Below, in pieces: positions 787 through 9,751 of a stretch of 9,751 nucleotides of DNA. Position numbers and translations under genes: made by a program. The stretch comes from Gemmatimonadota bacterium. GTDB lineage: Bacteria > Latescibacterota > UBA2968 > UBA8231. The notes beneath the pieces are model-generated. The model did no database searches. It was not told where the DNA came from and saw only the letters and a program-made list of their open reading frames with translations. Location of the stretch: assembly GCA_002712305.1 (NCBI GenBank), contig PATE01000050.1:32180-41930 (forward strand). Reading direction: 5' to 3'. Position 1 is the first letter of the stretch. The number at the start of each line of letters is the position of its first letter.

Positions 787-1482
787 TCAGACACCCGGCC
801 TCCGCGGTGCAACGATCTGTTCAAGACGATCGACTCGGCCCTCTACGGGGACGGTATGCAAATACTGATGTCCCCCGGCATAGGCCAATGTGTAGGTGAC
901 ATACTGTTGCGCATCGAGGGTGAGTAACTCGATCTGACCCGTCTGCTTTGAAGCCTTGACAGCGGCCTGGAGTCGTTCCCTGGTGAAGACTCGGTCATCG
1001 ATGCCGACGATCTTCAATCCTTCGAGATAGAGGAGGACCGTATTCCAGTTGATGATGCCGAGTGTTCGGTAACCGAAGGCGTCAACGCCACGAGAGTTGG
1101 TCGACGGCTGGTTGGTGATATAGGTCAGTTCGACGGTCGTCGGCCCCTCGGCGGCCTCTTGGCGCGGCACGAGGAAACGAAACATATCGGTGCCGTCCCG
1201 CTCCCACGCCAGGACCTGGCCCTGTGCATCTCGGGGAACAAAGCCGGCGACATTCTCGATGGGGCCTTTCGGGGCATGAATCCCCGGGATCCATTTCGGA
1301 TAGAGAAACACCAGCGTATCCGCATCGACATCGACCTCGATCCGGCTACGCAGCAGTTTGCGCGGCAGTTCAGTGGCGTCTACGTGTACAGTCAAGACCT
1401 GCTTCGCCTCGACGGAGGCAACCAGAAGCAGCCCCAGGGCCAGGACGTACCCGATGGTGGTGAAGCGATCTTTTGCTCTCAT
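787..1482 (-). CDS. Secreted M61-peptidase-like protein lacking the catalytic domain (N-terminal domain joined to C-terminal tail)
   Basis: 231 aa. Residues 1-26 form a signal peptide (basic MRAKDR, hydrophobic 9-22, probable cleavage after VEA). Residues about 28-155 match the M61 glycyl-aminopeptidase N-terminal domain: YPKWIPGIH (61-69), IENVAGF, and the strand LGIINWNTVLLY (141-152). Residues about 156-227 match the far C-terminus of M61 proteins, the end of the PDZ-like domain plus tail: LKIVGIDDRVFTRERLQAA, then YAGGHQYLHTVPVEG and VDRLEQIVAPR. The roughly 350-400 residues normally between them, including the zinc-binding HEXXH helix, are absent. The join near residue 155/156 (about position 1017/1018) keeps frame. 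The product should be exported but cannot be a peptidase. It may be a decayed gene, a binding remnant or an assembly collapse. Homology is judged from memory of family motifs, not from a search. Confidence 0.7.
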   Translation of the reverse strand: MRAKDRFTTIGYVLALGLLLVASVEAKQVLTVHVDATELPRKLLRSRIEVDVDADTLVFLYPKWIPGIHAPKGPIENVAGFVPRDAQGQVLAWERDGTDMFRFLVPRQEAAEGPTTVELTYITNQPSTNSRGVDAFGYRTLGIINWNTVLLYLEGLKIVGIDDRVFTRERLQAAVKASKQTGQIELLTLDAQQYVTYTLAYAGGHQYLHTVPVEGRVDRLEQIVAPRRPGV

Positions 1483-1565: not shown

Positions 1566-3515
1566 ATGACAACTACCGACTGGACTCGACATCTGCTGCC
1601 CCTGCCGCAGAAGACAACCCTCGGCGCATCTCGGACAGTCTCTCCCGCTGCCCTTCGAATTCGGCAGCGCGGTCGGGATGAAATCCTCCGGGTCGGGACC
1701 CAGCTTCTGCGGGATGCCGTAGGTGTCGAGTGTGACGAGCAGCCACAGCTCACCATCGAGCTTGGCACCTATGAGAAACTGGCCGGCCACCAGCCGGTGC
1801 AGGATTTGAGTTCACTGCCCAATTCCGATCAGGCGTATCAGATCGTCACCGTCTCTCCCGAGTTGATTGTGATCTGCGGACAGACCTCCGTGGGTTGTCT
1901 CTACGGAGCCATGACGATGGCCCAACTCATAGAGGGAGGCAGGAAGAACCGTCGACTGAGCATCCCCGACGTGGCGATTACCGATTGGCCGGATATTGAG
2001 CAGCGAGGGCTGTGGAACTACCCCGTCTCCGGATGGATTCCATGGATGTCGTCGATGAAGCTGAACTTCGGCAAGATGGCCGAGATGACGCTGGCGCCGG
2101 TCCAACGAGGCCGCCGCAATACGGCGACCATCGATTCGACCGTGATGAAACGAGTACGTCATCTCGGTTTCAGTTACGTGCCCTACATCGTGCACCTCAA
2201 TTTCCTTCACGAGGTTGGTCTGTTCCGCGCCCATCCAGAACTGGCAGGCAAGGGAGATCGGGCCCTGGCGGGTCGCTATTTTGCCCACAAACAGGGCAAT
2301 CAGCATCGGGCACCTTGTGCGTCGCAGCCGAAGCTGGCCGTCGTCCTTGGTCAGTGGATGGAATCGATCGCCCAGCAGGGCGCCGACGAAATCAGCTGCT
2401 GGCTGTCGGAACGTCCGTGTCAGTGTGAGTGCGAGCGGTGCACGCCCATTGGGCAGTTCGTGCTCGAGACACGGGCCTTCGTCTCTGCCTGGGAGAAGGT
2501 GCGACGGAGTCACCCCGACCTCTGCATTCGGATCTTCTCCTCCACGACCACGCCGGAGCAGGATGATCAGATCCTCGCTGAATTGCCACCGGAGGTTCGC
2601 TTCGAGCGTGCCTGCGCCAGCGGCATGGAGCGGGTCCGTCACCAGCCCCGCGATCTGTTCGCCAATCCCCTGCTCGACAAAGCTGCTCGCGAAGGTCGGT
2701 GGATCGCCAGTTACGACGTTCCCATAGGCGCCTACGGAGATGTGGACACGCCGGAGGTGAAAGTCCCGCAGTATTCGGCACAGCGAATTCAGAACTACGT
2801 TAATCAACTGCACGCTCGAGGATACGCTGGGGCCTATGGCATGTTGGCCTGGGGCAATCAGGCGAAAGAGATCTGCGGATTCGCCATCTCTGCTCTGGCC
2901 GAATATGGATGGAACGGGAATGGGCGCAGTGTGGAGGACTTTGCCACGGCCTGGGCCGTCCGTGAGGGGATCAAGAAGCCCGAGGCCGTCGGCCGATGGG
3001 CGGCGCGGCTGGGCGACGTAGAATACGACGTCTACGACAGCGGATTCCCCATCGACTATACGTGGGGTACTCTTGCCCAGAGTGTCGAGGATGGGGAGCC
3101 TCCCCGATTCAGCGAAGGCATCTTCCGACATTTCCACCGGACAAGAGACTTCTCAGCGCGCTTGTCCAAGTGCCAGCAGGCCCGGGATCAGTTACAGCCC
3201 AAGCTTCACGAACCGCTGATCCTGGCCACGGATGTTATCTCCAGCTATGTGCGGCTCGCCGCCGCGATCTGGCATGTAGCTCACGATCACGCTCACGGTG
3301 ATGTGGGCACGGTCGCCGTGCAGAAGCGGTTGGCTCGCCATGTGGACGAACTCGTGAAGGCGGGTGCCGCCAACGTAGAATCCATTCGCACCTGGCGCGC
3401 TCAACTGGGCGACGAACCTTGGGGGCACAGAGTGCACGATGCGATCGGCGCCACCGAAACCACTGTGGCCCGCATCGTTGACCATATCCGCCAACAGCAC
3501 AGCGACCTCACCTGA
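1566..3515 (+). CDS. Glycoside hydrolase-like protein with GH20b N-terminal domain
   Basis: About 649 aa, no signal peptide, presumably cytoplasmic. Residues about 10-130 look like the GH20b/alpha-glucuronidase-type N-terminal alpha/beta domain: LLPLPQ start, YQIVTVSPELIVICGQTSVGCLYGAMT, then IPDVAITDWPDIEQRG (134-149), the usual hand-over into a TIM barrel. The barrel region carries KLNFGKMAEM, GRYFAHKQGNQHR and ISCWLSERP. A cluster CQCECERC (285-292) recalls the Cys-rich segment of DUF4838/alpha-glucuronidase-like proteins and could bind a metal or form disulfides. I cannot assign catalytic residues or a substrate. The start is uncertain: ATG 1566 (MTTTDW) and ATG 1554 are both in frame and neither has a ribosome binding site; the open frame to 1473 runs into the divergent gene and is unlikely. 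The dehydratase gene follows 43 nt downstream on the same strand, suggesting shared glycan or uronate catabolism. Confidence 0.75.
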   Translation: MTTTDWTRHLLPLPQKTTLGASRTVSPAALRIRQRGRDEILRVGTQLLRDAVGVECDEQPQLTIELGTYEKLAGHQPVQDLSSLPNSDQAYQIVTVSPELIVICGQTSVGCLYGAMTMAQLIEGGRKNRRLSIPDVAITDWPDIEQRGLWNYPVSGWIPWMSSMKLNFGKMAEMTLAPVQRGRRNTATIDSTVMKRVRHLGFSYVPYIVHLNFLHEVGLFRAHPELAGKGDRALAGRYFAHKQGNQHRAPCASQPKLAVVLGQWMESIAQQGADEISCWLSERPCQCECERCTPIGQFVLETRAFVSAWEKVRRSHPDLCIRIFSSTTTPEQDDQILAELPPEVRFERACASGMERVRHQPRDLFANPLLDKAAREGRWIASYDVPIGAYGDVDTPEVKVPQYSAQRIQNYVNQLHARGYAGAYGMLAWGNQAKEICGFAISALAEYGWNGNGRSVEDFATAWAVREGIKKPEAVGRWAARLGDVEYDVYDSGFPIDYTWGTLAQSVEDGEPPRFSEGIFRHFHRTRDFSARLSKCQQARDQLQPKLHEPLILATDVISSYVRLAAAIWHVAHDHAHGDVGTVAVQKRLARHVDELVKAGAANVESIRTWRAQLGDEPWGHRVHDAIGATETTVARIVDHIRQQHSDLT

Positions 3516-3546
3516 TCATTCCTATCGATCCTATCCCTTCTCCCGC

Positions 3547-3550
3547 GGAG
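3547..3550 (+). promoter_or_regulatory. Ribosome binding site deciding the dehydratase start
   Basis: GGAG in CGCGGAGATC lies 8 nt before the ATG at 3559. It selects that start over the longer open frame beginning at 3439, which would overlap the upstream hydrolase gene by 77 nt. Confidence 0.7.
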
Positions 3551-3558
3551 ATCACGCC

Positions 3559-4557
3559 ATGCACGTAGGCACGCAGCAGTGGACGACGACGGACGAGGAT
3601 CTCGAATTCCTCGCTCGCCACGGCGTTACGGCCAAGAACGAGAACTTCATCACCTTTGATCGCGAAATCGGTTGGGATGTGAAGGAGTTGATCGAAAAGA
3701 AGGAGAAATGCGCCAAGTTCGGCATCGAGATGGAGATGGTAGCCATCCCCATCTCCTCACTGAACTGCCATGGCGGCGAGGTGCCCAACTACATGCTGGG
3801 CAATCGCGAGGAAGGTGACAAAGAGATCGAACTGGTGTGCAACATGATTCGCCAGGCGGCCGAGGCAGGGATCCCGGCGATCAAGTATTACCTGTGCGAG
3901 ATGGAGAATCAGCGAACACCCAGTGACCCACCTGGCCGGGGCAACTCGAGTTACAGCACGTGGGACATCGAAAAGGCAGACGACTCACAGCGCTACGATG
4001 AACCCGTCACCGCCGAGATGAACTGGGAGCGCATCACGTATTATCTCGAGCGTGTCGTCCCCGTCGCAGAAGAATGCAAGGTGCGCATGGCCTGTCACCC
4101 CTGTGATCCGTGGTTGCCGCCCGGTTTCCGTGGCGTCGATCGTGTCATGGGTGGGCCGGACGGCTTTCGAAAGTTCATCACCATCTGTGAGAGCGACTAT
4201 CACGGCCTGAATCTGTGTCTGGGCTGCATGGCGGAGGCGACGCCTGATTCGTCAAATGATGTGCCAGCCATCATCCGTGAGTTCGGGTCGCAGAACAAGA
4301 TTTTCCTCTGCCACTTCCGTAACATCATCGGCGGCCCGAATAAGTTCCAGGAAGTCTGGCCTGATGAGGGCGTGATGAGCATGTATCAGAACATGCAGGC
4401 CTTGAATGAGGTCGGATACCCGCACATGGTGGTCCCCGACCATGGTCCGGGCCACAGCGAACCGGGCGCCCATCGCCAGGCCTGGGCTTATCAGTGGGGG
4501 TACATCAAGGCGATGATTCAGGCCGTGCAGGAGAACGCACGTCAGGCGGCCGCGTAA
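3559..4557 (+). CDS. Mannonate dehydratase (UxuA)-like sugar-acid dehydratase
   Basis: 332 aa, cytoplasmic TIM-barrel enzyme. UxuA removes water from D-mannonate to give 2-keto-3-deoxygluconate in hexuronate catabolism. The four residues matching the UxuA metal ligands can be placed: H180 in MACHPCDPW, C220 in NLCLGCMAE, H252 in FLCHFRNIIGG and D294 in VVPDHGPG. RN after H252 and the C-terminal helix WGYIKAMIQAV also match. The protein is shorter than E. coli UxuA (394 aa) and lacks the typical UxuA N-terminus, so it belongs to a divergent branch; the true substrate could be another aldonate, or the enzyme could act as an isomerase. Extra cysteines (70, 94, 113, 173, 179, 182, 210, 223, 251) are numerous for a cytosolic enzyme. 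It lies 43 nt after the GH20b-domain gene, probably in one operon, and faces the DUF3047 gene. No terminator hairpin is visible at its 3' end. Confidence 0.8.
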   Translation: MHVGTQQWTTTDEDLEFLARHGVTAKNENFITFDREIGWDVKELIEKKEKCAKFGIEMEMVAIPISSLNCHGGEVPNYMLGNREEGDKEIELVCNMIRQAAEAGIPAIKYYLCEMENQRTPSDPPGRGNSSYSTWDIEKADDSQRYDEPVTAEMNWERITYYLERVVPVAEECKVRMACHPCDPWLPPGFRGVDRVMGGPDGFRKFITICESDYHGLNLCLGCMAEATPDSSNDVPAIIREFGSQNKIFLCHFRNIIGGPNKFQEVWPDEGVMSMYQNMQALNEVGYPHMVVPDHGPGHSEPGAHRQAWAYQWGYIKAMIQAVQENARQAAA

Positions 4558-5175
4558 GGCAGGAGGTTCGTAGCCGAAGGCGTCCACGAAGTCGGTGTGT
4601 ACGTTGCGAGATTCAGTGACCCAGCGCCCTGCATCGAGATCACCAGAGCGCAGCACGACCATCCGGCCCCGCTTCAGCGCCCACGTGCTGGGAACCATCG
4701 TGCCCACGGGCAGCTTGTTGTCCCAGATGTAAACGAGGGTGCGGACGGCCAGTGGGTTCCAACGGCTGTTGCTGAAAACCAGATAGAGGCGGGCGGCGTA
4801 ATCGTCGCCCGCCTTCTTTGTGGCATCCGCCCCTGTCAGGGCCGCCGATACCTGCCATCGCCAGCTCAGCAGAGGCCAGTCTGCGATGTCGACGGTGTCG
4901 TCCGCCAGATCCGACAGCTTCACGCCGAAGGCCCGGAAGTCGATGACGCTGTCGGCCCGCAGGCATCGATTCCCATCGGGTTGCGTGAACAGGGTCAGGG
5001 GCTGCAACCCCATGCGGGGCAGAGGGTCAGCGCGCCATGGGGTCAGATCGCCTTCGAAGTCGCTTGCCAGCAAGGACGGTGCGACCTGCGGTGGTGATGT
5101 CGTCTCGTCGGCCCATGCGGTAACACACATGAAAACCGTAAGAACCACGACCTGCGCTTGTTTACTCCTCTTCAC
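4252..5175 (-). CDS. Secreted DUF3047 family protein, C-terminus truncated and running antisense into the dehydratase gene
   Basis: The open frame from GTG 5175 gives 307 aa. Residues 1-22 are a signal peptide (VKRSK, hydrophobic AQVVVLTVFMCVTAWA, cleavage before DE). The DUF3047 core follows: DFEGDLTPW (39-47), CLRADS, LLSWRWQV (102-109), KAGDDYAARLYLVF (121-134), LVYIWDN and WVTESRNVHTDF up to FGYEPPA (206). Family members normally go on with a strand containing an asp-rich MTDSDNTG-like motif and a YGDI ending. Here residue 207 is already the complement of the dehydratase stop codon, and the last about 100 codons (306 nt) are antisense to that gene and show no domain. The GTG start overlaps the end of the CBM9-FGE gene by 14 nt, suggesting translational coupling; an upstream ATG at 5277 would overlap far more and lose the signal peptide. 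The function of DUF3047 is unknown; a periplasmic or secreted role is inferred. Confidence 0.65.
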   Translation of the reverse strand: MKRSKQAQVVVLTVFMCVTAWADETTSPPQVAPSLLASDFEGDLTPWRADPLPRMGLQPLTLFTQPDGNRCLRADSVIDFRAFGVKLSDLADDTVDIADWPLLSWRWQVSAALTGADATKKAGDDYAARLYLVFSNSRWNPLAVRTLVYIWDNKLPVGTMVPSTWALKRGRMVVLRSGDLDAGRWVTESRNVHTDFVDAFGYEPPALRGRLTCVLLHGLNHRLDVPPLISPGLAMGARFAVARTMVGDHHVRVSDLIQGLHVLIHAHHALIRPDFLELIRAADDVTEVAEENLVLRPELTDDGWHII

Positions 5176-6745
5176 GCACACAGCGAAACCCGAGACTGAA
5201 AAACCAGCGACCCGGACCGTCGGCATCGCGATAGGCACTCGGTAGATTTGCTTCCTGTTTGCTGAAGCCACCCCCACGAACAGAATACAGCTCGCGGACC
5301 AGGGCCTGCTGCTGATGCAGATCCAGGGTGTCTGTGGCGCTGTTGACGAACTCCAGCATCGGTCCCCCCCCCGGGTAGGAGTGATACTCGTCGCGACACC
5401 ACTCCTTCACATTGCCCGCCAGATCAAGGATCCCCTCTGGCGTGGCACCGAGTGGGAACGACCCGACGCGGGTGGTTCCCCCGTACTGGTAGTCGTAGTT
5501 CGCCCGTTCCGGCGTGGGTGGCTCCTCACCCCATGGATACGTGCGTCCCGCCAGACCTCGCGCCGCCCTCTCCCATTGGGCCTCGGTGGGGAGCAGTCGG
5601 TCATACCACAGGGCATACTGCGACGCCGCCGTGTGGGTCACGTAGACGACGGGATGCATCTCGCGACCCGGAACGACCTCATAGCCGCCTCCCACGGCGC
5701 GGATTCCGCACTCATCGGGGTTGGCCATGTACTCCACGTAGTGTTCATCCAGACCGGTGTCATTCAGGAACTTGACGAATTGAGAGACCGTCACGGGATA
5801 CCGATCGATCCAGTAGCCATCGAGGTGAACCTCGTGAGCGGGACTGGCGGCGGCGTCTGAGGGATCGGGACCCATCGTAACGTCACAGGCCTCGATCCAG
5901 ACCATGTCGTCCACATGGCGCGGCGTCGGCGTCGGACGCGGGCGAATCGTGGGTGCAGCGAGCATCTCCACCTGATCGTCTTCCTCGGCGGTGGTGTGCT
6001 CACTGAAAAAGACGCGCCCCCAGGTCTCGGGGATATGGAGATCGCCACAGTTCGTCGAATTCCAGATCCAGTCCTCGCAGCGCGAACCAGGCTTGCGGCG
6101 CGCCTCTCCGTCGAGCGTGGGATACTGAACGCGGGAGAAATTCACCCGTATCATCTGGCCGGATATGGGGGGAATGTGATCTCGCGGGATGTGCCCGGTG
6201 ATGGCACTCCATGGCCACTTGATCTCGACCGCCCACCCTTCGTCCGTGTCGCTGGAATCATTCAGCGTCCCCTGCACGAGCACGGCCGTTTCGAGACCGT
6301 CGATGTCATACGCCGTCACCAGACACGACCTGCGGTGATACTCCTTGGGATGAAACATGTCCCACACCGTGTTCAGGGCGTTCACCTCGAGTTCGTAGTA
6401 GTTCTGACCGCGTCCATCCACGTCGAGGAACACTTCGAAATCGTTGTCGTGGTAGATGACGGTGTCTCGTTCGGTGATCGTCGCCCAGACGTTGTCCTCG
6501 TGCAGACGCGCCGCGAAGTAGAGGGCTTCGTCGTCCCACAGCATGGCCGCCTTGGTCAGCTTCCACGGCGCAGGTGCATTCGGGGCCTGGTGATCTTCGA
6601 AGGCCTCCGTCCACGTTGCCGCCTGCCACACCGGCTTTTCCAGGTCGCCATCGACGTGAATGGTCTCACTGGCCCGATAACACACATAGGAGCGGGGAAC
6701 GAACAGTCCGTCCGGATGGCGAACCGTCATGGGCAGTTGCGTCAA
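5162..6745 (-). CDS. CBM9-like carbohydrate-binding domain fused to FGE-sulfatase (SUMF1) domain
   Basis: 527 aa, no signal peptide seen. Residues about 20-250 are a CBM9-like beta-sandwich: IHVDGDLEKPVWQAA, a strand at AAMLWDDEALYFAARL, DNDFEVFLDVDG, YYELEVNALNTVWDM and WAVEIKWPW. A Pro-rich linker (RPRPTPTPR, 268-276) leads to a formylglycine-generating-enzyme fold at 280-527: MVWIEACDVTMGPD, HEVHLDGYWIDRYPVTVSQF, LLPTEAQWERAARG (384-397), YPWGEE, GILDLAGNVKEWC and VRGGGF ... LGFRCV. The SVRGGGFSKQEANLPSAYRD segment holds no cysteine where true FGE has its Cys pair, so sulfatase activation is unlikely; a binding or other oxidoreductase role is possible. The TTG start at 6745 overlaps the TGA of the upstream gene (TTGA) and has GGAGG 7 nt before it. 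A run of nine G in the coding strand (5372-5364) encodes GGG at 459-461. Confidence 0.85.
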   Translation of the reverse strand: MTQLPMTVRHPDGLFVPRSYVCYRASETIHVDGDLEKPVWQAATWTEAFEDHQAPNAPAPWKLTKAAMLWDDEALYFAARLHEDNVWATITERDTVIYHDNDFEVFLDVDGRGQNYYELEVNALNTVWDMFHPKEYHRRSCLVTAYDIDGLETAVLVQGTLNDSSDTDEGWAVEIKWPWSAITGHIPRDHIPPISGQMIRVNFSRVQYPTLDGEARRKPGSRCEDWIWNSTNCGDLHIPETWGRVFFSEHTTAEEDDQVEMLAAPTIRPRPTPTPRHVDDMVWIEACDVTMGPDPSDAAASPAHEVHLDGYWIDRYPVTVSQFVKFLNDTGLDEHYVEYMANPDECGIRAVGGGYEVVPGREMHPVVYVTHTAASQYALWYDRLLPTEAQWERAARGLAGRTYPWGEEPPTPERANYDYQYGGTTRVGSFPLGATPEGILDLAGNVKEWCRDEYHSYPGGGPMLEFVNSATDTLDLHQQQALVRELYSVRGGGFSKQEANLPSAYRDADGPGRWFFSLGFRCVREEE

Positions 6746-7344
6746 GCTTCAGCCTCCGGCAGGTCGAGCTTCCCTTCCTCGGCGAGTTTGGCAATGTGGT
6801 TGGCGATCCGCCCCTGCACTTCGGCGATCGTCGCTGCGTCCGCCTGTAAGTGGCCGATCTCTTCCTCGATGAATCCCCTTACCCTCTGCGACATGTTGCC
6901 GAGGAAATTCGCCCGCACAGACTCGGGGGCGCCCTTCAACCCGCCGACGAGATCCTTCTGATCGATTTGGCGCAAAACAGCCTGAATGGAGCGATCCGAC
7001 AGGCGCGCAGCATCGGCAAACTGGAAGGTCGTGTCGGTGGTGCTGGCGGGATTCCGAGCCACCTCGGCGACCAGTTCCTCGTCAGCCTGGGTCGACTGCG
7101 GCGCGGACTGCGGAGGAGCAGGATTACCCGACGGACGCAATCGCGGCTCAATTAAGACACTCAACTTGTGTTCGACGATTCGTGGATTGTCGCCCGACTG
7201 CAGGCTCATGAAACCCTCGGTCACCATACGCTTGTGCAGAGATTCCGGGGCGTCAGCCACTTCCAATCTGTTCGTCAGAGCTTGCATCAGTCCGAAGATG
7301 AGGGCCAGACCCGCAATGACACCGATGAGTGTCGCAATGTCCAT
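6742..7344 (-). CDS. Small MotA-remnant/FliG C-terminal domain fusion protein
   Basis: 200 aa in three parts. Residues 1-19 (MDIATLIGVIAGLALIFG...) match the MotA TM1 start. Residues about 20-70 match the MotA cytoplasmic tail after TM4: LTNRLEVADAPESLHKRMVTEGFMSLQSGDNPRIVEHKL. A Pro/Gln linker (71-87) leads to a FliG C-terminal torque domain at about 105-198: LSDRSIQAVLRQIDQKDL, LKGAPESVRANFLGNMSQR, then EVQGRIANHIAKLAEEGKL. Aligned by eye to E. coli FliG, K264, R281, D288 and D289 correspond to K137, R154, E161 and E162; R297 becomes A170. MotA TM2-4, the conserved prolines and the loop carrying R90/E98 are missing, so it cannot be a proton-conducting stator. It is probably a single-pass membrane-anchored protein with FliG_C in the cytoplasm. 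ATG 7344 has AGGAG 9 nt upstream. No MotB is visible; the next gene overlaps by 4 nt (TTGA). Confidence 0.75.
   Translation of the reverse strand: MDIATLIGVIAGLALIFGLMQALTNRLEVADAPESLHKRMVTEGFMSLQSGDNPRIVEHKLSVLIEPRLRPSGNPAPPQSAPQSTQADEELVAEVARNPASTTDTTFQFADAARLSDRSIQAVLRQIDQKDLVGGLKGAPESVRANFLGNMSQRVRGFIEEEIGHLQADAATIAEVQGRIANHIAKLAEEGKLDLPEAEA
6753..6757 (-). promoter_or_regulatory. Ribosome binding site deciding the TTG start of the CBM9-FGE gene
   Basis: A perfect GGAGG lies inside the end of the upstream reading frame, 7 nt before the TTG at 6745-6743. The next in-frame ATG (6730) would be 22 nt away, so the TTG is preferred. The TTGA overlap suggests coupled translation. Confidence 0.7.
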
Positions 7345-7353
7345 GTCTTGCCT

Positions 7354-7358
7354 CTCCT
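7354..7358 (-). promoter_or_regulatory. Ribosome binding site of the MotA/FliG fusion gene
   Basis: AGGAG within ATAGGAGAGG lies 9 nt before the ATG at 7344, inside the 23-nt gap after the SDR gene. It argues that the short fusion frame is translated from its annotated start. Confidence 0.6.
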
Positions 7359-7367
7359 ATGCTTGGG

Positions 7368-8192
7368 TCAGGTGAGCCATGCCCCACCTGATACATTCAC
7401 AGCCAGTCCTGACAGATATGCTGCTTCGTCCGAGGCGAGAAAAGTGGCGGTTCGGGCCACGTCGTCGGGCTGGGCGATTCGCCCGAGGGGCACCATCGCA
7501 GCGTGCTCTGCGATCAACCCCTGCCGATGGGTCTCCATATCGACCCCCTCTGGCCGTAGCCCCTCAGCCATGCCCGCGAGGCGTTCGGTTTCTGTGAGCC
7601 CGGGGCAGATGGCATTGGCCGTGATCTGGTACTCGCCGAGTTCCTTGGCCAGCACTTGCGTCAATCCGATAATGGCGAACTTGGACGCACAGTAGGCCCC
7701 AAATCGAGGGATGCCCTGACGGCCGGCGGAAGAGGAGATATTGATGATCCGCCCACCACCTCCTCGCGCGATCATGTGTCTTGCCACGGCCTGAGCGCAG
7801 AGGAAGGTCCCCTTGCCGTTGACCTCCTGAACACGCTGCCATTCAGACTCGGGCAGATCGACAAGGGGCACCCGATCGGGGCCGGCCGGTGCACCGGCGT
7901 TGTTGACGAGAATATCGATGCGACCGAACCGCTCGAGACTGTCGTCGACCATCTGCTGCACCTGCTCGCGCTCGCGGATATCGACCTGCAGGGCCAACGC
8001 CGCAGGACCGGCCTCTTCGATCTGCGCAGCCACAACCGGCAGGCCGCCCCACGCGCCAGGGCCATCGAGTGTGACATCGGTGACGACGACCTGTGCACCT
8101 TCCTGCGCCAGTCTGAGGGCGATGGCCCGGCCGATGCCGTGTTCACCGCCGGCACCGGTGACGATCGCCGTCTTCCCCCGAAGGTCGTACAT
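7368..8192 (-). CDS. Short-chain dehydrogenase/reductase (SDR)
   Basis: 274 aa, classical SDR with a Rossmann fold, cytoplasmic, NAD(P)-dependent oxidation or reduction of an alcohol/carbonyl. Visible motifs: the nucleotide loop TGAGGEHGIG (12-21), two residues longer than the standard TGxxxGIG; D39 at the end of the second strand, which favours NAD(H); NNAG (97-100); N125 in EVNGKGTF; the catalytic serine region NISSSAG (151-157, probably S154); and Y167-x3-K171 in AYCASKF. ICPGLTETE (195-203) and the C-terminal DEAAYLSGLAVNVSGGAW are typical of the family. The length is normal and nothing appears missing. The ATG abuts the upstream hydrolase stop (TAG|ATG) and the MotA/FliG gene starts 23 nt after its stop, so it sits inside the minus-strand operon. 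The substrate is not identifiable; a sugar or sugar-acid dehydrogenase would fit the surroundings. Confidence 0.93.
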   Translation of the reverse strand: MYDLRGKTAIVTGAGGEHGIGRAIALRLAQEGAQVVVTDVTLDGPGAWGGLPVVAAQIEEAGPAALALQVDIREREQVQQMVDDSLERFGRIDILVNNAGAPAGPDRVPLVDLPESEWQRVQEVNGKGTFLCAQAVARHMIARGGGGRIINISSSAGRQGIPRFGAYCASKFAIIGLTQVLAKELGEYQITANAICPGLTETERLAGMAEGLRPEGVDMETHRQGLIAEHAAMVPLGRIAQPDDVARTATFLASDEAAYLSGLAVNVSGGAWLT

Positions 8193-9751
8193 CTATTTAG
8201 CCATCCTGCGACGCAGTTCACCCTGCGCCTCGCGAAACAGACCGATCAACCGGCCGCGAACCGCTTCGTCCTTGAACACACCCATCTTCTGCGCCCACGT
8301 GATGCCACCCTCCATGTGGGTCATCATGTATTCGCCGTCGGTCTCCTCAAAGGCACAACGTTTGTCGACGTCGATGTATACGGGGGACGAGTGAGCCATC
8401 ACCGGCCCGGCGTCTGTGGCGTAGGGACCCCAGCATCGCGCCGCGACCCAGCACGATTTCTCCGTCTTCAGCTTCGTCGACAGCCGCAGAGTTCGATCCC
8501 CTTCGTCGGTCGTTTCGCGCACATGCCGGACGCCATTGACGATCAGTTCCACCGCCGTGAGGGGCCAGACGCTGTTGGCCTCTACTTCGATCTCCAACGT
8601 ACCTCCATTGCCGGGCAGCGAAATTTCCTCACCCATCTGCGCCCCCTCCACGCGCAGATCGATCATGGCGCCGGTGCTGGCGAAGGTGTTGCCCGCCTTC
8701 ACGGCGCGGCACCAGTTTTCGTAGGTGAATTCCTCGCCGTCAGGCAGCTTGGCGTAGGTCCGCGACCCGCCCAAGATCCGTCCGTTGGACATCTTGTCCG
8801 TGCCGCCGACGATGGGAAGTTTCTGACCCACATTGAGCCAGCGGTAGTACCCCTTCTCTCCCTGGCCGATCTGTTCACCCTGCCACACCCAGCACATCTC
8901 CGCCGCGTCTGCATGCCCCATCACGATGTTGGCAGCATTCTCGAAGTCGGGCACGGGCATGTGGGGCATGATCACCAGACCGCCCTGCGCCTTGCACGCC
9001 TCGGCCCAATCTGCCATCAGTGTCTGCACCTCACCGCCGACCCAGTCCTCCTGGGGACCACCGGTACACATGGGCGCAACCAATTCGCTGAGACCCAGCA
9101 GGGAGATGTGCCCGAGCACGTGCTGCCGGTTCTCCTGGCTGACCCAGACGAGGTGATCGTCGCTCGAGGTCGGCGCCAGGCCACCGGTGAACTCCTCCCA
9201 ACTGGTAAACAATCTGCCCCACTTGCTGGCCAGCAGATTTACCACGTTCAGATCCTCCCCCGCTGCCTCAAGGTGACTCGACTGCGAAGACAGAAAATGC
9301 ACGTGCGTATCACCGGAGTAGTATCCCTTCGCCTTCATGTCGAAGGCTCGTTTCGCCTTCACCGTCAGGTGGCGCTGCCCCGGCTTGATCTCAACCAGTT
9401 CTCGCACAGGATCGTATTCGAAACCGCGCGCCACTTCGACATAGTTGGCCCCTCTCGGGAGCTCGATCTGGCACGTGCCATCGATATACGCATAAGGCAC
9501 GCCGTTGGTCTTGCAGTCTCCACCCATGTCTTCAAACCAGGCGACATTCACATCCTGCTGGTGACCGTGGGGCGCCAGATAGTTTCCCTGCTTTGAACGG
9601 AAGTGAACGCGGCAGCCGACAGGTTTCCCCGTATCCTCGTCTTCAACGCGCACGTGCACCCACTCGGTGCCGTGGTGACCGACGACCTCGATACGAACCG
9701 GCCCATCCTCCGCCTTGCCTTTGGCCAGCACATCGCCCCAGCGGAACGCCG
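8193..9751 (-). CDS. CehA/McbA family metallohydrolase (PHP fold), 5' end beyond window
   Basis: At least 519 codons. A GTG at 9731 could serve as start, but the frame stays open to the window edge (reading ...AFRWGD before it), so the real N-terminus probably lies outside. Numbered from that GTG, residues about 20-130 form a beta-rich N-terminal region ending in PRGANYVEVARGFEYDPV and EIKPGQ, as in carboxypeptidase-regulatory-like folds. The PHP metal site starts at YYSGDTHVHF (137-146; H143, H145). Other likely ligands are H204 or H208, H257 in GLVIMPHMP and D312 in VGGTDK. GGSRTYAKLP and AVKAGNTFASTGAMIDL match the CehA core; the usual GSDxH has K in place of H. A beta-rich domain follows (about 350-465), then a helical tail ending RRRMAK. 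CehA-type enzymes hydrolyse esters or phosphoesters; the substrate here is unknown. It is the first visible gene of the minus operon. Confidence 0.85.
   Translation of the reverse strand, partial: AFRWGDVLAKGKAEDGPVRIEVVGHHGTEWVHVRVEDEDTGKPVGCRVHFRSKQGNYLAPHGHQQDVNVAWFEDMGGDCKTNGVPYAYIDGTCQIELPRGANYVEVARGFEYDPVRELVEIKPGQRHLTVKAKRAFDMKAKGYYSGDTHVHFLSSQSSHLEAAGEDLNVVNLLASKWGRLFTSWEEFTGGLAPTSSDDHLVWVSQENRQHVLGHISLLGLSELVAPMCTGGPQEDWVGGEVQTLMADWAEACKAQGGLVIMPHMPVPDFENAANIVMGHADAAEMCWVWQGEQIGQGEKGYYRWLNVGQKLPIVGGTDKMSNGRILGGSRTYAKLPDGEEFTYENWCRAVKAGNTFASTGAMIDLRVEGAQMGEEISLPGNGGTLEIEVEANSVWPLTAVELIVNGVRHVRETTDEGDRTLRLSTKLKTEKSCWVAARCWGPYATDAGPVMAHSSPVYIDVDKRCAFEETDGEYMMTHMEGGITWAQKMGVFKDEAVRGRLIGLFREAQGELRRRMAK

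What the first reader, a model, noticed from the sequence alone, without database searches (positions are those of the whole stretch)
6742..7344. MotA stator remnant fused to a FliG torque domain in one 200-aa membrane protein
Residues 1-70 read as the first transmembrane segment plus the post-TM4 tail of MotA, and 105-198 read as FliG_C with the charged torque-helix positions kept (K137, R154, E161, E162, by eye against E. coli FliG K264, R281, D288, D289). MotA and FliG normally sit on opposite sides of the stator-rotor interface. In this protein the MotA loop that contacts FliG is gone and the FliG partner is tethered in cis. It could be a decoy, a brake or clutch, a motor-derived scaffold in a non-motile cell, or the deleted form of a longer natural MotA-FliG fusion. 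No MotB or other flagellar gene is visible. I know of no described stator/rotor fusion of this form.
Basis: partly seen in the sequence, partly recalled or inferred. Interest (0 to 1): 0.75.

Follow-up and report, generated by a model that had tools for sequence, protein, structure and literature searches.

The report
Shortened natural MotA–FliG stator–rotor fusion
The 200-residue protein is an internally shortened copy of a natural protein that joins a piece of the flagellar motor's stator (MotA) to the part of its rotor (FliG) that the stator pushes, and related bacteria carry longer and even membrane-free versions that look like motor regulators nobody seems to have described.

Summary
Confirmed: on the minus strand, 6742-7344 encodes 200 aa = MotA-derived membrane segment and post-TM4 tail + 32-aa linker + FliG_C (Pfam E 7e-19). 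The window form is not the original design: same-genus genome G001 has, in the same operon, a 377-aa full-length MotA-FliG_C fusion; the window copy lacks 519 nt in frame. A second fusion (417 aa) stands in another family, a frame-broken one in a third genus; two more loci have lost the MotA middle and are broken. Full-length fusions keep the FliG-contacting loop (RREGILALE) but lose the conserved TM3 proline. The clade also carries soluble chimeras in reverse order (FliG_C, then MotA cytoplasmic parts), one intact in this genome and under purifying selection. All nine chimera-bearing genomes have FliM; none of 35 FliM-less ones has a chimera. Engineered MotA-FliG_C of the same order docks FliG_C on the stator (PDB 8ucs), so stator capping (clutch or decoy) is the favoured mechanism, inferred only. 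Caution: the same contig shows other clean internal deletions against G001, so the short form may be erosion or assembly error.

The parts
6742..7344 (-). 200-aa MotA(remnant)-FliG_C fusion gene
   Evidence: ORF, Pfam/NCBIfam/PDB sequence matches; ortholog of 377-aa fusion in G001
7300..7344 (-). residues 1-15: start of MotA TM1
   Evidence: alignment to G001 fusion and canonical MotA
7297..7309 (-). junction of the internal in-frame deletion (519 nt missing relative to G001)
   Evidence: diagonal shift 3148 to 3667 in blastn/tblastx of window against G001:C97
7270..7299 (-). residues 16-25: end of MotA TM4, completing one hydrophobic span (residues 1-25)
   Evidence: alignment and hydropathy
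7135..7269 (-). residues 26-70: MotA post-TM4 cytoplasmic tail (LHKRMVTEGFMSLQSGDNPRIVEHKLSV)
   Evidence: NCBIfam MotA profile 188-251; own HMM E 2e-19
7033..7128 (-). residues 73-104: 32-residue Pro/Ala/Gln-rich linker
   Evidence: 36 residues in G001, 83 in G035
6760..7038 (-). residues 103-195: FliG_C with torque-helix residues K137, R154, E161, E162
   Evidence: Pfam PF01706; alignment to E. coli FliG
7351..7357 (-). ribosome-binding-like GGAGAGG
   Evidence: sequence read directly
5162..6745 (-). downstream gene, CBM9 + sulfatase-modifying-factor (FGE) domain, overlaps the fusion stop by 4 nt; neighbour conserved in G001 and G012
7368..8192 (-). upstream gene, short-chain dehydrogenase; same neighbour in G001
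8193..9749 (-). CehA/McbA family metallohydrolase, runs off the contig end
   Evidence: NCBIfam NF038032 E 4e-48

Best explanation
Shown by sequence: the gene is an internally shortened descendant of a natural MotA-FliG_C fusion. The full-length form is a MotA whose FliG-contacting cytoplasmic loop and tail are intact, whose TM3 proline and TM4 threonine motif are lost, followed by a flexible linker and a FliG_C. The window copy keeps one hydrophobic span, the MotA tail, the linker and FliG_C, so FliG_C should sit on the cytoplasmic face of the membrane. Inferred: the full-length fusion works as a stator cap or clutch. Its tethered FliG_C docks between neighbouring MotA cytoplasmic domains, either in its own ring or in mixed rings with ordinary MotA, and keeps the rotor's FliG from engaging. 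The operon that carries it would thereby lower motility when carbohydrate-processing genes are on, as EpsE does from the eps operon in Bacillus. The window copy can at most do the simpler half, a membrane-held FliG_C that competes for stators; it may already be failing. My separate estimates: origin about 0.9; clutch or decoy function of the family about 0.4; function of this short copy about 0.25.
For: Full-length ortholog with the same operon neighbours. Same order in another family (G035, 417 aa) and, in broken frames, in G013. Loop RREGILALE and tail kept while the TM3 proline is gone in G001 and G035 (in G013 that position reads as an ambiguous base) and the TM4 LTT motif is changed; MotA R90/E98 contact FliG and P173 belongs to the stator core (PMC7564593 abstract; PMC10117855; PMC4030992). 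An engineered C. sporogenes MotA(1-262)-linker-FliG(239-333) has this order, and its FliG_C was seen docked between adjacent MotA cytoplasmic domains (PMC11302681; PDB 8ucs). Chimeras only in FliM-positive genomes, 9 of 29 against 0 of 35. Soluble chimera in this genome under constraint, dN/dS 0.12.
Against: No experiment. The window gene evolves faster than most neighbours (dN/dS 0.23-0.26 against 0.02-0.10 for four of five neighbours; synonymous sites nearly saturated). Torque-helix position R297 is not kept, and the contact loop is gone in the window copy. Two related loci (G012, G007) are broken. Genes of the operon have no visible link to motility. The co-occurrence with FliM is confounded by shared ancestry.
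Confidence: 0.45

Rival explanations
1. Decaying remnant: the fusion is losing its function in this lineage, the MotA middle has been lost, and the 200-aa protein does nothing useful.
For: Three loci have lost the MotA middle at different breakpoints: window (in frame), G012:C13 (after TM2, frameshift, internal TGA), G007:C63 (after TM2, frameshifts). dN/dS 3 to 10 times that of most operon neighbours. Other genes on the same contig are also internally shortened.
Against: Frame, start, ribosome-binding-like site, stop overlap and the torque-helix charges are all intact; dN/dS is still well under 1.
Confidence: 0.3
2. Assembly or single-sample artefact: the organism has an intact full-length fusion and the 519-nt gap was made in assembly.
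For: The same contig shows further clean internal gaps against G001: M61 peptidase (231 against 649 aa, 1206 nt), a DHDPS-like TIM barrel (163 against 306 aa), a 1297-aa gene cut to 136 aa, all with G000 the shorter one. Two other contig pairs (C91, C8) show at most one such case.
Against: No missing piece of the fusion, the M61 gene or the TIM barrel is found elsewhere in the assembly; three gaps that keep the frame are unexpected for artefacts; no N in the window.
Confidence: 0.2
3. Motor parts reused as an oligomerising or membrane-anchoring scaffold unrelated to the motor, for example to hold the carbohydrate enzymes of the operon together.
For: Operon context is catabolic; FliG_C in this phylum also stands in proteins with sigma-factor, FecR-like, propeller-SpoIIE and FGE domains.
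Against: Chimeras are absent from every FliM-less genome, while the N-terminal domain of the soluble ones persists there without FliG_C or MotA parts; MotA loop contact residues are kept in the full-length fusions.
Confidence: 0.15

Closest known systems
Engineered C. sporogenes MotA(1-262)-FliG(239-333) fusion (PMC11302681; PDB 8ucs)
   Same: Order MotA, flexible linker, FliG_C in one chain; native fusions in G001 (36-residue linker) and G035 (83)
   Different: Man-made for structure determination with an active MotA and MotB; natural ones lose channel residues, and the window copy lacks the docking loop
FliG (flagellar rotor switch protein)
   Same: C-terminal domain homologous, four torque-helix charges kept
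   Different: No FliG_N or FliG_M; chimera FliG_C domains fall outside the canonical FliG group (support 99/98)
MotA/PomA stator subunit
   Same: G001 fusion matches MotA over its whole length (E 5e-37)
   Different: Bit score far below the MotA equivalog cut-off (127 against 340); TM3 proline lost; window copy keeps one span only
EpsE clutch of B. subtilis (PMC3000366) and YcgR brake (PMC10140304)
   Same: Proposed mode: a non-motor operon or signal makes a protein that disengages stator and rotor
   Different: Unrelated folds; nothing has been tested here

Membership tests
FliG | FliG_C domain above Pfam cut-off | tested here: met
   68.5 bits against 23.3
FliG | FliG_N and FliG_M domains (assembly on FliF, contact to FliM) | tested here: not met
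   only FliG_C found; TIGR00207 54.9 against cut-off 226.7
FliG | torque-helix charges K264, R281, D288, D289, R297 | tested here: inconclusive
   four of five kept, R297 is D169
MotA stator | four transmembrane helices | tested here: not met
   one hydrophobic span, residues 1-25
MotA stator | FliG-contacting loop with R90/E98 | tested here: not met
   deleted in the window copy; kept in full-length G001 and G035 fusions
MotA stator | TM3 proline (P173) and TM4 threonine | tested here: not met
   deleted in the window; changed in full-length fusions
MotA-FliG_C fusion (natural, defined here) | MotA part followed by linker and FliG_C in one open frame | tested here: met
   full length in G001 and G035
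Motor clutch or brake | binds stator or rotor and lowers motility | not testable with these tools
   needs bench work

The most novel reading that the evidence does not exclude
One bacterial phylum has evolved a class of stator-rotor chimeras, both membrane-bound (MotA-FliG_C) and soluble (FliG_C followed by TM-less MotA cytoplasmic domains), that serve as dedicated clutches of the flagellar motor, each carrying both faces of the torque interface in one chain.
Probability: 0.35. Interest if true: 0.85.

Novelty: new variant of a known kind. Interest (0 to 1): 0.62.

Why it matters
The torque interface between MotA and FliG is the heart of the flagellar motor. Structural biologists had to build a MotA-FliG_C fusion to see it; here evolution has made the same fusion, apparently with a dead channel, and also soluble versions that keep only the two contact surfaces. 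If they regulate the motor they are a self-contained class of clutch and a ready-made set of natural variants of the interface. The short window copy itself is of lesser value, as it may be erosion or an assembly gap.

Tried and rejected
AlphaFold2 on the window protein with 12 rows: mean pLDDT 45, not used. Viral contigs: no relative. The genome-contig scan gave only what look like ordinary MotA and FliG of other phyla, and 30 of those genomes hold MotA and FliG as separate genes, so no fusion was found outside the phylum. Search for the missing fusion middle or the missing M61/TIM-barrel pieces elsewhere in the genome: none. Phylogeny of FliG_C: too few columns to resolve the chimeras among themselves; window, G001 and G012 group with weak support 93/69. 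'No motor in this cell' rejected. Literature searches for a natural MotA-FliG fusion found only the engineered one; the library is open-access only.

Full report
What is there. The feature lies on the minus strand, 6742-7344, and encodes 200 aa. FliG_C is certain (Pfam E 7.4e-19, residues 103-195; PDB FliG structures). The MotA part is weaker but independent: NCBIfam MotA E 2.2e-7 over residues 3-70, aligned to MotA 188-251, i.e. TM4 and the tail.

The window copy is a shortened form. The only other genome of the genus held, G001, has the same operon: CehA/McbA-like hydrolase, short-chain dehydrogenase, fusion, CBM9-FGE protein, DUF3047, with a mannonate-dehydratase-like gene and a PhyH gene further on. 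Its fusion has 377 aa: a complete MotA (NCBIfam E 5e-37 over 1-243) and FliG_C (E 8e-19). Aligned to it, the window gene lacks 519 nt in frame, from after residue 12-15 of TM1 to the middle of TM4. What is left is one hydrophobic span, the tail, a 32-residue linker and FliG_C. MotA's ends are both cytoplasmic (own knowledge), so a span made of half of TM1 and half of TM4 cannot keep both ends inside; with the acidic N terminus and the basic flank after the span, N-out/C-in is likely, which puts FliG_C in the cytoplasm (inference).

A family, not a freak. G035, from another family, has a 417-aa fusion in the same order. G013 has the same order spread over several frames with ambiguous bases. 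G012:C13, next to the ortholog (72%) of the CBM9-FGE gene, has TM1-TM2 joined to FliG_C with a frameshift and an internal TGA. G007:C63, in a setting like that of G013, has lost the MotA middle with frameshifts. Full-length fusions keep the RREGILALE loop and the tail but change the TM3 proline and the TM4 threonine motif. MotA R90/E98 are the FliG contacts; P173 and T209 sit at the stator core near the ion path (PMC10117855; PMC4030992). So the fusion looks like a stator ring without drive but with its FliG-binding face (inference).

Reverse-order soluble chimeras. The same clade has proteins with an N-terminal helical domain (motif LKxQAKxL), one or two FliG_C, and one or two copies of the MotA loop joined directly to the MotA tail. 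Of nine tested for hydropathy, eight show no transmembrane segment and one (G005:C60) a single one near its C terminus. NCBIfam confirms the MotA part in two of them (E 1e-16 and 2e-18). One is intact in this genome (G000:C8, 416 aa), is 73% identical to its G001 counterpart and has dN/dS 0.12. Canonical FliG has 0.03-0.06; the membrane fusion has 0.23-0.26 (synonymous sites nearly saturated, so these are rough). In a FliG_C tree every canonical FliG lies on one side of a 99/98 branch, with a FliM-FliG and a few other fused proteins, and all MotA chimeras on the other.

Link to the motor. FliM is present in 29 of 64 genomes of the phylum. MotA/FliG chimeras, intact or broken, occur in nine of those (G000, G001, G005, G007, G009, G012, G013, G019, G035) and in none of the 35 without FliM. 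Chance with independent genomes is 4e-4, but the genomes are related. Within genus g7, all three flagellate genomes have them and the eight others do not; in g5, three with and one without. The N-terminal domain alone persists in several FliM-less genomes. In 30 genomes of other lineages MotA and FliG are separate.

Mechanism. The authors of PMC11302681 fused FliG_C to the end of MotA by a flexible linker and saw up to three FliG_C docked between adjacent MotA cytoplasmic domains (PDB 8ucs). The natural fusions have this very order. The simplest reading is a self-capped stator, or a subunit that caps mixed rings, i.e. a clutch made from the operon that carries it, comparable in logic to EpsE (PMC3000366). 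This is inference. The window copy has lost the docking loop and could only act as a membrane-held FliG_C.

Caution on the short form. The same contig shows other clean internal gaps against G001: an M61 peptidase gene in this very window (787-1482, 231 against 649 aa), a DHDPS-like TIM barrel cut to 163 of 306 aa and a 1297-aa gene cut to 136. All go the same way, and the missing pieces searched for are nowhere else in the assembly. Two other contig pairs show at most one such case. So the deletion is one of several in a local stretch, by erosion or by assembly, and should not be read as a purposeful design.

Absent MotA/MotB. No canonical motA or motB was found in G000, but its fliM match begins at position 430 of contig C48, and in G001 motA and motB lie just upstream of a fliM; the pair may be in a gap of this 91% complete assembly.

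Verdict. The interest lies in the full-length and soluble chimeras, for which I found no description in the open-access library searched.

Noticed in passing
window 787-1482 (-): M61 peptidase gene is 231 aa against 649 aa in G001: 1206 nt, including the catalytic part, missing in frame near window 1024.
   Followed up: yes
L150:2574-4463 (G061:C244): ECF-type sigma factor fused to three FliG_C domains in one 630-aa frame.
   Followed up: partly
L161:2423-5194 (G001:C15): FliM + FliN-type domains + complete FliG in one 924-aa frame: a whole C-ring set in one chain.
   Followed up: partly
L153:3521-5602 (G035:C58): FGE-sulfatase domain fused to a complete FliG (694 aa); an FGE protein is also the neighbour of the window fusion.
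   Followed up: no
L138:4047-8165 (G011:C122): Two-component-type propeller protein with a FliG_C inserted between propeller repeats and a SpoIIE phosphatase at the end.
   Followed up: no
L008:838-2433 (G000:C102) and L148:2745-4517 (G001:C71): FliG_C followed by a transmembrane segment and a FecR-like part; about nine relatives of 530-590 aa in the phylum.
   Followed up: partly
L014:1495-1914 and 1931-2449 (G000:C69): Tandem short MotA-like membrane proteins (139 and 172 aa) that lack the large cytoplasmic loop, the complement of the soluble chimeras.
   Followed up: no
L142:584-1060 (G012:C13): Broken MotA-FliG_C fusion next to the CBM9-FGE ortholog; a MotA middle like that of the fusions lies on another contig with runs of N (L172:3758-4456).
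   Followed up: partly
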